NCBI GenBank assembly: GCA_017614715.1
Contig: JAGABI010000025.1
Span: 1-64,000, forward strand
DNA from: Bacteroidales bacterium
GTDB lineage: Bacteria > Bacteroidota > Bacteroidia > Bacteroidales > UBA932
Reading direction: 5' to 3'
Length of the DNA: 64,000 nt
Part shown: piece after piece, positions 43,193 through 45,736 of the stretch
Layout of the letters: the number at the start of each line of letters is the position of its first letter
How positions within the stretch are numbered: position 1 is the stretch's first letter
Notes under the pieces: generated by a model
What the model saw: only the letters and a program-made list of their open reading frames with translations
Database searches by the model: none
What the model was told of the DNA's origin: nothing
Program-made: the position numbers and the translations under genes

Positions 43193-43263
43193 TGAGATAT
43201 GGTGTAATGGTAGCACTAGAGATTCTGGCTCTCTCGGTTCGGGTTCGAGTCCTGATATCTCAA
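43193..43263 (+). tRNA. tRNA-Gln (anticodon CTG)
   Basis: Cloverleaf read by hand: acceptor TGAGATA/TATCTCA (43193-43199 with 43256-43262), D-stem GTGT/GCAC, anticodon stem AGAGA/TCTCT with loop TTCTGGC, anticodon CTG at 43225-43227, and T-arm containing GGTTCGAGTCC. Discriminator A at 43263; CCA is not encoded. The weak first pair T1-A72 is characteristic of glutamine tRNAs. Confidence 0.95.
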
Positions 43264-43300: not shown

Positions 43301-43581
43301 CTATTGGTTTGTGCGTTGCACCCGGAAGCCGAGTGCTGCGATAATGCGATAAAAAGTTCCTACACTTGGCATTATCTCTCGACCCGAGACACATAACTTT
43401 TGTCTGCGAGTTCTAACTGTGTAACACCAGCCTCTTTTCTAATATCACGTATTATTTGTCCTGAATAAAACGAGTATGCTTCTTCTTCAAATCTGGTGCG
43501 TTCTGGCGTTCCCGGTGCACCATATTTAGCATCTAATACGGCATCATAGTCCCTTATCTTTCTGTCATTAACTTGGTTCAT
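43301..43581 (-). pseudogene. Frameshifted HigA-like (XRE) antitoxin
   Basis: The minus strand encodes a 69-residue frame (RTRFEEEAYSFYSGQIIRDI, then RKEAGVTQLELADKSYVSRVER) that stops inside the helix-turn-helix domain. In another frame directly after it comes EIMPSVGTFYRIIAALGFRV, the usual C-terminal continuation of these antitoxins, ending at 43301. The HTH also seems about four residues short between ELADK and SYVSR. So the gene has a small in-frame deletion and a frameshift. No HigB toxin gene is adjacent. Confidence 0.75.
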
Positions 43582-43664
43582 CGTTTTCTACTTTAGCCCA
43601 AATGTAACTATAATTGTAATATGTTACAACTTTTTCCAGAAACGGTAACGCCTTTTTGAAAATG

Positions 43665-43758
43665 CAAATACCCACCATCCGCAAAGTGCAGATGCCTCCG
43701 CTTGCAATGCTTTCTGGGCAAAAATCTGCCCCTGAAAGCATTCAAGCTACGGTATTTG
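43665..43758. repeat. Large hairpin structure H1
   Basis: CAAATACC (43665-43672) pairs with GGTATTTG (43751-43758). Nested inside are GCTTG/CAAGC (43700-43704, 43743-43747), AATGCTTTC/GAAAGCATT (43706-43714, 43734-43742) and GGGCA/TGCCC (43716-43720, 43727-43731) with a 6-base loop. The inner 48 bases are almost fully paired. No coding frame with family similarity overlaps it. Confidence 0.7.
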
Positions 43759-43779
43759 TCTGCGCTTCGCTCTGTCGCC

Positions 43780-43848
43780 AACGGTCCAGCCAAAGCGCTC
43801 CAACGTTTTGTTTTGGCTCCACGAAACTTTGGCGGGAGCGCAACCGTT
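43780..43848. repeat. Hairpin structure H2
   Basis: AACGGT (43780-43785) pairs with ACCGTT (43843-43848), and GCGCTCC (43795-43801) with GGAGCGC (43835-43841). The word CCAAAGCGC at 43790 recurs inverted as GCGCTTTGG at 43917-43925. Part of the hairpin cluster between the antitoxin relic and the FISUMP gene. Confidence 0.6.
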
Positions 43849-43984
43849 TTCCCTCCTAAAGTCGGAGTGACGAGCAATGCCGCGCGGGACGGGTGTGACC
43901 TCAGCGGAACTCCCTGGCGCTTTGGCGGGACAGGAATAGGGTTCTATCCAGCATAAGTGGCGGAGTGGCACAGTCGCATTATTC

Positions 43985-44126
43985 CGGCAATCACAAGCGG
44001 ACAATGTACGCCCTTAGACCACTGTGTCATGGGAGACCCCGCTTTGAATGCTGATATCAGCAAACAGAGCGGACACTTCTGCTCCTTACACACACTAAAC
44101 GGCATCCAATCCGCTTGTGATTGCCG
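43985..44126. mobile_element. 142-bp element with 17-bp perfect inverted ends (MITE-like)
   Basis: CGGCAATCACAAGCGGA (43985-44001) and its exact reverse complement (44110-44126) enclose 108 bases. Inside, CCGCTTT (44039-44045) pairs with AGAGCGG (44066-44072) around the 12-base palindrome GCTGATATCAGC (44050-44061). The size, the long perfect terminal repeats and the absence of coding capacity resemble a miniature inverted-repeat element, but no target-site duplication is obvious, so mobility is an inference. Confidence 0.55.
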
Positions 44127-44138
44127 AAAAATATTTTG

Positions 44139-44217
44139 ACGGCCTTGCGGCCGTATGGGTTGAGGGCTGTCGCCCCCATGACAGGAGGTTTTGATGATGC
44201 CCGCATACGCAGGCATC
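44139..44217. repeat. Three consecutive small hairpins
   Basis: ACGGCC-TTGC-GGCCGT (44139-44154); CTGTC (44167-44171) with GACAG (44180-44184); and a 9-bp stem with a 4-base loop at 44196-44217 (GATGCC...GGCATC). The last, read on the minus strand, encodes the MPAYAGI-like string often seen where intergenic hairpins are translated, so it is not a gene. Together with H1, H2 and the 142-bp element, these fill the 667 bases without a gene from 43582 to 44248. Confidence 0.6.
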
Positions 44218-44247
44218 TGGCAGTCCGGGCTACGCCCATGACTGCCA
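44218..44247 (-). repeat. GC-rich hairpin immediately after the FISUMP stop codon
   Basis: TGGCAGTC (44218-44225) pairs with GACTGCCA (44240-44247), and inside it GGGC/GCCC (44227-44230, 44234-44237) closes a 3-base loop. Only one base separates it from the TAA of the FISUMP gene. There is no T-run in the gene's direction. It could be a transcription-end hairpin, or the DNA hairpin that follows variable regions in diversity-generating retroelements. Confidence 0.65.
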
Positions 44248-44248
44248 A

Positions 44249-45736
44249 TTATTCTGTGACAGGGCGAACAGAGAACCCGTCGTAGCGGTAGTAGTAGCCC
44301 CAGCCGTAATAGTCGGAATAGAAGTCCACGTAGCACGCGCGGTACGGGTAGTCCGTACTGAGGGAAGAAGACCAGTAGTAGCCGTCGGACCCCGCAAGGC
44401 CGAGGCCGGTATTGTACCGGTAGCCAGCGGCGGGAAGGAATATGCTGTTGCCGTTGGTGTTGCTGGTAACGAGTCTTCCGTTAACACCATTCTGGGTTGT
44501 CCATGTCCAGGTGCATTCATCTAACAGTTCCTGCCACTCTTCAATTGTGGGCATTCTCCATGTGCCACCCCAATTTGCTGTAGCTGCGTCATCCTCGGGA
44601 TCGAGTACGGTGTTGTTGTCAATAGGGCCGTAATCACTGGATGTATTATACTTGGAGAATTTCACGTTATCCCATGAATCGCCGCTTGTGCGGAACGGAC
44701 AAGTGTCCCAGTAATAGTAATTCGATTCTTGCGGCGCCGTGGCTCCCCAAGCGAAGTAATCTCCGTACTCCTCCGGAGCATTAGCACCAACGTTGCAGGT
44801 TGCCCACTTGAGACCGGAGGTCAAGCCGAGGTCAACGGCTCCAGGTGTGCCGTTGGTGAAATTATCGGAGAAGCGCAGGAAGGCGGCCTTGCCCTTGTTC
44901 ACCACGCGGGAGACTACCGGGGCGGTGTATGTGCCGGAGTTGGTTCTCAATGTGGCGGTCACTGTCTTATTGCTGAAGTCCAGCGGCTGCACGGCAATAT
45001 AGGCACGCACCGTCTCATTCTCCCTTGTAGTGGCAGTGTTCTCAAATTTCAGAGTAAGGGATTCCCTGGTTTCAATTGGTGTAACCGCTGGAGTATCTCC
45101 GGAAATATCCAGAGCAGCCTTCTCTACGAAGATGGCCTCGTCGCAGGATATTGTCAGCGATGTGATGGTTGCGGGTTCGGGGACTACGATGTCTATGTAG
45201 AGAATAGAACCCTGCCTGTCCATCTGGAAGGTGACACTGTTGTTCTCTGGCATCGTCTTGGCCGAGGCCAGATAATCGTATGCCGAGAGGTGTGCGAAAC
45301 TGCCGTTGCCGTTCTGCACCTGTCCAGAATAATCCATGATAATTGTCTTGTTGTCCTGGAAGTAGTTCCATACACTGAACGGATAGTATGCAGCATATGA
45401 TGCATTGTTTCTCAGTGCCCAGCCGCCGCCGTCGAACGTTGCGCTGGTGGAACTCGATTGAGTCTTAATAGGAAACTCCACCTGATTGCCCTCGTGGGGA
45501 AAGATGCCGAGGGTGTCTCCTACTGCCCAGTTGAATACCAGTGCGATGCCGTCATCCACTGATGTCGCTTTTGTCTGCTCAGAGCCACTTATCGGCTCGA
45601 ACTCTATTTCGCCAGGGCCAACGAACTTGATGGTATTGATGTAGTCCTGCATATCAAGGGCGGACTGTTTGTCTGCGGTGCAAGCAGTCATTGACACCAG
45701 TAATATTGATGCCACAAGGAGTTTGATGTTCCTCAT
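44249..45736 (-). CDS. Fimbrillin-like lipoprotein with C-terminal FISUMP domain
   Basis: 495 residues. Signal MRNIKLLVASILLVSMTAC with lipobox Cys19. Residues about 45-290 resemble Bacteroidetes fimbrillin/Mfa-like proteins (FNWAVGDTLGIFP, YAAYYPFS, VQPLDFSNKTVTATL). The C-terminal about 195 residues form a Fibrobacter-succinogenes-major-paralogous (FISUMP) domain: VDLGLTSGLKWATCNVGA, YGDYFAWG, WRMPTIEEWQELL, GYYWSSS and the terminal GFSVRPV. The segment before that ending is dense in Tyr, Asp and Gly, as in variable C-type-lectin-like folds. Likely a surface adhesin or pilus-tip protein. It lies alone in an accessory strip. Confidence 0.8.
   Translation of the reverse strand: MRNIKLLVASILLVSMTACTADKQSALDMQDYINTIKFVGPGEIEFEPISGSEQTKATSVDDGIALVFNWAVGDTLGIFPHEGNQVEFPIKTQSSSTSATFDGGGWALRNNASYAAYYPFSVWNYFQDNKTIIMDYSGQVQNGNGSFAHLSAYDYLASAKTMPENNSVTFQMDRQGSILYIDIVVPEPATITSLTISCDEAIFVEKAALDISGDTPAVTPIETRESLTLKFENTATTRENETVRAYIAVQPLDFSNKTVTATLRTNSGTYTAPVVSRVVNKGKAAFLRFSDNFTNGTPGAVDLGLTSGLKWATCNVGANAPEEYGDYFAWGATAPQESNYYYWDTCPFRTSGDSWDNVKFSKYNTSSDYGPIDNNTVLDPEDDAATANWGGTWRMPTIEEWQELLDECTWTWTTQNGVNGRLVTSNTNGNSIFLPAAGYRYNTGLGLAGSDGYYWSSSLSTDYPYRACYVDFYSDYYGWGYYYRYDGFSVRPVTE

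What the first reader, a model, noticed from the sequence alone, without database searches (positions are those of the whole stretch)
43640..44248. Gene-free 650 bp packed with nested hairpins
At least seven strong inverted repeats lie end to end: H1 (43665-43758, multi-level), H2 (43780-43848), the 142-bp element, a palindrome inside it, and hairpins at 44139, 44167, 44196 and 44218. Open frames in the region translate to strings typical of repeats, not proteins. The H1 loop side read on the minus strand (TTTTTGCCCAGAAAG) resembles the RAYT repeat (TTTTTGCCTCAGAAG), so part of the cluster may be RAYT-mobilised REP DNA. Alternatively it is a structured non-coding RNA or a recombination hot-spot.
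Basis: seen in the sequence. Interest (0 to 1): 0.6.

Follow-up and report, generated by a model that had tools for sequence, protein, structure and literature searches.

The report
Hairpin cluster beside a hypermutating gene
The hairpin-packed stretch is the tail end of a gene that a bacterial self-mutation machine (a diversity-generating retroelement) rewrites: four conserved hairpins mark the rewritten end, and two other folded repeat elements lie behind them, one of which seems to be new.

Summary
The hairpins are real and are three repeat modules laid end to end. Module C (44139-44246) is four hairpins directly after the stop codon of gene 44249-45736(-). That gene is a remote target of a diversity-generating retroelement (DGR): its 3' end matches a template repeat elsewhere in the genome, which lies between an avd-like gene and a reverse transcriptase, and differs from it at 33/58 template adenines but only 15/129 other bases. 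The same four-hairpin block, with compensatory changes, follows 13 such variable regions in 4 genomes. By homology with phage BPP-1 (PMC3240598) it is most likely the hairpin/cruciform that marks DGR targets. Module A (43678-43931) is a 254-bp dispersed element with strong covariation (21 of 42 pairs), found in 10 of 26 genomes of this rumen Bacteroidales genus and none of 137 sampled genomes of other genera. Module B (43982-44129) is a MITE-like hairpin repeat. A RAYT origin is not supported: the genome's RAYT-like gene has a different palindrome beside it, and the genome with most A copies (17) shows no Y1 transposase. All 18 A hits near DGR parts point their right end at them. A's function is unknown.

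The parts
44249..45736 (-). Remote DGR target gene: 495-aa lipoprotein-like protein with a weak C-terminal FISUMP/Lcl_C match
   Evidence: ORF; Lcl_C E 4e-7, below cut-off; FISUMP TIGR02145 E 2e-4, below cut-off
44265..44441 (-). Variable region (VR), 3' end of the target gene
   Evidence: 76% to TR at G000:C45; 33/58 TR adenines changed against 15/129 other positions
44139..44246 (-). Module C: four-hairpin array directly 3' of the VR gene's stop codon
   Evidence: Fold z -6.7; same block after 13 VRs in 4 genomes; covariation
44219..44246 (-). C hairpin P1 (7-bp stem plus inner GGGC/GCCC)
   Evidence: 93% of helix-1 cells paired
44196..44217 (-). C hairpin P2
   Evidence: 94% of cells paired
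44163..44176 (-). C hairpin P3, loop GACA (fits the GRNA loop of phage DGR targets)
   Evidence: GRNA loop in 11 of 13 rows
44139..44154 (-). C hairpin P4 (weakest; 57% of cells paired in this alignment)
43982..44129 (.). Module B: dispersed hairpin repeat resembling a MITE, 20-bp terminal inverted repeats
   Evidence: I1; similarity 43966-44131 to other places in the genome; fold z -7.5
43678..43931 (+). Module A: 254-bp structured dispersed element with defined ends
43685..43766 (+). H1 hairpin of module A
   Evidence: covariation; covariance model R1
43784..43931 (+). Second domain of module A, closed by helix 43784-43798/43917-43931
   Evidence: I4; helix 5
43372..43581 (-). Short ORF resembling an antitoxin N-terminus (69 aa); neighbour, not part of the DGR
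   Evidence: TIGR03070 E 5.8e-5, below cut-off

Best explanation
The region is the 3' flank of a remote DGR target gene. The DGR at G000:C45 (core target gene, four hairpins, avd-like gene, template repeat TR, reverse transcriptase) copies its adenine-rich TR into mutated cDNA and writes it over the 3' ends (VRs) of several lipoprotein genes, of which 44249-45736 is one. Module C, four hairpins directly after the VR, is the target-recognition structure, as the hairpin/cruciform after the VR is in phage BPP-1. Behind it lie two unrelated dispersed hairpin repeats, B and A, that do not belong to the DGR machinery as such. Shown: RT, TR, adenine-biased VR divergence, conservation and covariation of C at VR ends, the multi-copy nature of A and B. 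Inferred: that C is needed for homing, that this target is still being rewritten, and that A and B spread by transposition or recombination.
For: RT in the own genome, nearest solved sequences being 'Reverse transcriptase' 8ub7 and others (run on the G021 orthologue; I recall these entries as the BPP-1 DGR RT). Avd-like neighbour (NF033474 E 1.2e-5, below cut-off). TR at L030:2205-2395 with 21 AAY codons, counted by eye. Adenine bias in 14 of 14 VRs tested, p from 5e-5 to 7e-14; core VR 24/60 A against 4/136 other. C after 13 VRs in G000, G006, G021 and G016, 10 of 31 pairs with two-sided changes, 0 of 500 shuffles reach the covariation score. The P3 loop fits GRNA in 11 of 13 rows, the loop consensus in PMC3240598 (passages read).
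Against: The last ~20 bases of the window VR differ from the TR at non-adenine positions, so it may be a former target or belong to another TR. The C stems are shorter than, or built differently from, the 7-10 bp stems with 4-nt loops of phage DGRs, and P3 starts about 70 bases beyond the stop codon, against 4-34 bp from the VR in that paper. Some of the VR-like hits in the genome lack C. The avd, FISUMP and Lcl_C matches are all below curated cut-offs. The fold prediction of the target was too poor to test the C-type lectin fold (mean pLDDT 43), and a profile search of solved structures found nothing.
Confidence: 0.9

Rival explanations
1. The hairpins are REP/BIME-type DNA spread by a RAYT transposase.
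For: Dispersed intergenic hairpins; a RAYT-like gene exists at G000:C15.
Against: A different palindrome pair lies just downstream of that RAYT-like gene; its 16-nt motif occurs in 6 of 206 loci held and not in the finding; G006 has 17 A hits and no Y1_Tnp match, while 12 of 16 A-free genomes have one; C is tied to VR ends, not scattered.
Confidence: 0.05
2. Module A is a structured non-coding RNA gene present in several to 17 copies, not a mobile DNA hairpin.
For: Constant ~254-bp length at about 70% identity, strong covariation with conserved loops, z -3.6.
Against: No Rfam match; no fixed place relative to neighbouring genes (14, 14, 11 and 8 of the four arrangements among 47 copies with genes on both sides); pieces and fusions are common.
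Confidence: 0.25
3. Module A is the boundary of a cassette-like mobile unit carrying DGR targets or toxin-antitoxin genes, working like an integron attachment site.
For: 18 of 18 A hits with a DGR part within 3 kb point their right end at it; same-orientation rows of A with genes between (L102, L104); homology of window and C15 units starts at A's left end.
Against: No integron integrase above cut-off in 26 genomes; one-sided flank sharing is not clearly skewed to the right (6 right-only and 4 left-only clusters); the 18 are not independent, perhaps 12 lineages; no attC core seen by eye.
Confidence: 0.12
4. The four hairpins of C are only transcription terminators of the lipoprotein genes.
For: They follow stop codons.
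Against: Four in a row with covariation; no U-run follows P1 to P3 in the alignment; found here only at VR ends, with the same linker sequence between P2 and P3.
Confidence: 0.05

Closest known systems
DGR target hairpin/cruciform of Bordetella phage BPP-1 and other phage DGRs (PMC3240598, abstract and passages read)
   Same: Inverted repeats directly downstream of the VR; stem sequence varies while pairing is kept; loop GRNA in P3
   Different: Four hairpins instead of one; P1 is a 7-bp stem with an inner stem; the GRNA hairpin has a 5-bp conserved stem and lies about 70 bases beyond the stop codon; bacterial lipoprotein targets, most far from the RT
Remote DGR targets, e.g. Treponema denticola (PMC4891356, two passages read)
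   Same: VR genes far from the core module
   Different: Shared 3' hairpin block at core and remote targets; the words 'hairpin' and 'inverted repeat' do not occur in that paper's main text
REP/BIME and MITE-type intergenic repeats
   Same: Dispersed, intergenic, hairpin-forming (A, B)
   Different: A is 254 bp, two-domain, has no matching terminal inverted repeats, and no link to RAYT was found
Integron cassette arrays (attC), recalled
   Same: Folded sites in same-orientation rows with one or two accessory genes between
   Different: No IntI, no attC core seen, gene orientation mixed

Membership tests
Diversity-generating retroelement | DGR-type reverse transcriptase next to the TR | tested here: met
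   PF00078; best solved relatives 8ub7 group; TR 2205-2395 and RT 2502-3824 of L030
Diversity-generating retroelement | VR differs from TR mainly at TR adenines | tested here: met
   14 of 14 VRs, largest p 5.2e-5
Diversity-generating retroelement | Accessory avd gene | tested here: inconclusive
   NF033474 E 1.2e-5 with 25.5 of 80 bits; bAvd E 0.058
Diversity-generating retroelement | Target with C-type lectin fold | tested here: inconclusive
   Model too poor; Lcl_C and FISUMP weak; no PDB profile hit
Diversity-generating retroelement | Hairpin/cruciform just 3' of VR, required for homing | tested here: inconclusive
   Presence, position and covariation met; requirement needs an experiment
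REP elements mobilised by RAYT | Same palindrome beside the RAYT gene | tested here: not met
REP elements mobilised by RAYT | Co-occurrence with Y1 transposase | tested here: not met
   G006: 17 A hits, 0 Y1_Tnp
Integron cassette (attC) | Integron integrase in the genome | tested here: not met
   0 of 26 above TIGR02249 cut-off; the control genomes ring equally weakly; genomes are incomplete
Integron cassette (attC) | attC core sequences | not tested
   Looked at by eye only; no attC model was run
MITE (module A) | Terminal inverted repeats and target-site duplication | tested here: inconclusive
   Ends do not mirror each other and no duplication was seen by eye; no clean empty site found
MITE (module B) | Terminal inverted repeats | tested here: met
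   20-bp arms, 95% complementary
Rfam RNA families | Match to a curated model | tested here: not met
   only a tRNA in the window at gathering scores

The most novel reading that the evidence does not exclude
Module A is a directional, structured attachment element of an unrecognised cassette system in rumen Bacteroidales that gathers and moves DGR target genes and toxin-antitoxin genes without an integron integrase, so that a single retroelement gains new remote targets that arrive with their hairpin landing marks.
Probability: 0.1. Interest if true: 0.75.

Novelty: new variant of a known kind. Interest (0 to 1): 0.5.

Why it matters
It ties an unexplained hairpin cluster to a working principle, target marking by a DGR, and gives natural stem variants of the mark (GGCAGTC/GACTGCC, GACTCGC/GCGAGTC, GTCGGGC/GCCCGAC) at core and remote targets of one genome group, so the hairpin rule known from one phage can be tested in a gut bacterial DGR with many targets. 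Roux et al. 2021 (PMC8144416, passages read) state that their survey would not detect remote targets; a shared 3' hairpin block is a handle for finding them. Module A is a well-bounded structured element for which I found no name.

Tried and rejected
RAYT/REP origin: rejected for A, B and C. Integron: no integrase above cut-off. Phage or plasmid origin of A: no match in phages or plasmids; the short core found in viral contigs is a chance match, local similarity 47 bp or less. The one genome-collection hit outside Bacteroidales (L138, Coleofasciculus) is similar over 25 bp only. Cassette asymmetry: one-sided flank sharing was not skewed as a cassette model predicts. Empty-site search at rpsA: flanks too diverged. 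Viral relatives of the RT: none confirmed. Structure of the target: model too poor, so no fold search was run. Tandem repeats in the RT gene: none found by TRF, although repeats are visible in the protein. One search chose wrong reading frames at several loci; only its DNA was used, and the C alignment was remade. Row dropping: one search kept 57 of 74 rows (17 left out, reversed self-matches); alignment A2 used 36 copies and A3 32; one search left out L204, a second fetch of L040, and used 50 of 51 full copies.

Full report
WHAT IS THERE. The stretch 43640-44248 lies between a tRNA (43193-43263; tRNA-Gln at the matching place in G021 and G007) with a short antitoxin-like ORF behind it, and the 3' end of a minus-strand gene of 495 aa (44249-45736). 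They fall into three blocks, each folding better than all of 200 shuffles: A, B and C. Searching the own genome with the region gave 20 matches besides itself and showed that the blocks are separate repeats. Of 60 genomes searched, the own included, 11 matched, all of one genus. Named relatives are Bacteroidales genomes, mostly from the ruminant gut (25 of 26 loci are Bacteroidales).

THE DGR. One of the C copies and one of the A copies flank the only reverse transcriptase found in the own genome (C45). The order there is: target gene with VR, C, avd-like gene, TR, RT, A reversed. The TR (L030:2205-2395) matches the 3' ends of further genes, the window's among them. Of the window VR's positions, 33 of 58 facing a TR adenine differ, against 15 of 129 others; for the core VR 24 of 60 against 4 of 136; all 14 VRs tested in three genomes are biased, each against its own genome's TR. 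In reading frame the TR carries 21 AAY codons (my count), and in the window VR many of these encode Y, D, G or S. RT orthologues lie in G021 and G006, each with a TR, a C and an A (in G006 an A without its first hairpin) nearby; G004 has only a distant RT (27%). This is a DGR with many targets. The own genome has 19 TR-like places at E <= 1e-3, the TR itself included; I did not show that each is a live target, and several of the matching genes carry the VR-like part elsewhere than at their end, without C.

MODULE C. A search with the C block found it at 13 places in G000, G006, G021 and G016, each time directly after the stop codon of a VR gene. The alignment shows P1, P2, a conserved linker, P3 and P4. 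With the structure named by me, 85.7% of cells pair (sliding the partners gives 32-41%), 10 of 31 pairs have two-sided changes, and none of 500 shuffles reaches the covariation score; one measure, further pair types, does not exceed the shuffles. P4 is badly aligned and pairs in only 57% of cells. Guo et al. 2011 (PMC3240598; abstract and passages read) showed for BPP-1 that a hairpin/cruciform directly after the VR is needed for efficient homing, that its stem may vary in sequence, and that phage DGRs have 7-10 bp stems and GRNA loops 4-34 bp from the VR. P3 here has a GRNA loop in 11 of 13 rows. I therefore read C as this mark in a four-hairpin form. That it works so is inferred.

MODULE A. 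A is 254 bp with sharp ends. A profile of 36 copies found 82 hits (83 with one doubly fetched), of which 51 are full length, in the loci held. On the 36-copy alignment 95.5% of cells pair, 21 of 42 pairs have two-sided changes (98 cells), and no shuffle reaches this; the structure was partly derived from these sequences, which favours it. A covariance model of its first hairpin matches 10 of 26 genomes of the genus. In a family sample of 149 genomes it matches 6, all in the same genus, and none of the 137 from other genera, under stricter filters. No Rfam family, phage or plasmid matches. A sits between genes without preferred side or direction. Pieces break at few places: 5 left-end pieces stop at element positions 52-57, just past the loop of H1; a sixth stops at 63. 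In nine copies the left end is missing or replaced (matches that start at positions 23-33 and run to the right end); at least seven carry there a ~90-bp repeat that is common in the genus.

A AND THE DGR. In the own genome 5 of 14 A copies lie within about 3 kb of a VR, in 3.9% of the genome (P 1.3e-4, binomial, not corrected for clustering). Of 82 A hits in the loci, 18 have a DGR part (C, VR, TR or target homology) within 3 kb, and all 18 turn their right end to it, whichever way the gene points (p 8e-6 if independent, weaker because some are orthologues or duplicates: I count about 12 lineages by eye). A has no such bond in the 64 other hits, and occurs in seven genomes in which no orthologous RT was found (several are incomplete). 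Flank comparison of 50 copies found 1 pair sharing both flanks, 13 sharing only the left and 7 only the right, so A marks joints between unrelated stretches, but not in the one-sided way that a cassette would give. The window unit A-B-C-gene has a second copy at C15 (83-86%), beginning at A's left end beside different genes.

MODULE B. About 148 bp with near-perfect inverted ends. It occurs at C15 in the same A-B-C order, at three other places in the own genome and in G021; those are not beside C.

PRIOR WORK. The searches of the library were for DGR hairpins, DGR in Bacteroidales or rumen, FISUMP and remote targets, REP/RAYT in Bacteroidetes, MITEs in Bacteroidales, and DGR hairpins in Bacteroides. 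In their listings I saw no description of a four-hairpin DGR target block or of element A; this is limited to those searches and to open-licence papers. Of PMC10743442 I saw passages only; its hairpins are protein hairpins.

VERDICT. A confirmed observation with a mostly new explanation: a DGR target mark plus two dispersed structured repeats. The DGR part is a new variant of a known kind. Element A is the less understood and more surprising part.

Noticed in passing
L030:3245-3450; L079 and L080 RT frames: The DGR reverse transcriptase carries, just before its catalytic YVDD, an insert of degenerate copies of the same motif (about 3 units in G000, 5 in G021 and G006); the nearest solved RT has only a few residues there. 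TRF sees no DNA repeat.
   Followed up: partly
L129:3-980 (G000:C15): RAYT-like transposase (NF047646 E 1.7e-10, below cut-off) with an inverted pair of palindromes just downstream (GTGTCGATAACGTCCC); the motif recurs at L069, L035 and L096.
   Followed up: partly
L033:853-947 and many places: A ~90-bp repeat, common across the genus also in genomes without A, is fused into the left arm of A's first hairpin in at least seven copies.
   Followed up: partly
L102:233-5084: Row of same-direction A copies and A pieces with one or two accessory genes between them, resembling a cassette array.
   Followed up: partly
L070, L071, L072, L073 and others: Large lipoproteins with VR-like stretches inside the gene rather than at its end and without module C; possible former or non-DGR paralogues.
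   Followed up: no
43372-43581: 69-aa ORF like the N-terminus of an antitoxin, ending early; perhaps a decayed toxin-antitoxin gene beside the tRNA. In G021 and G007 the tRNA-Gln at the matching place is followed by other accessory DNA, with a DGR target in G021.
   Followed up: no
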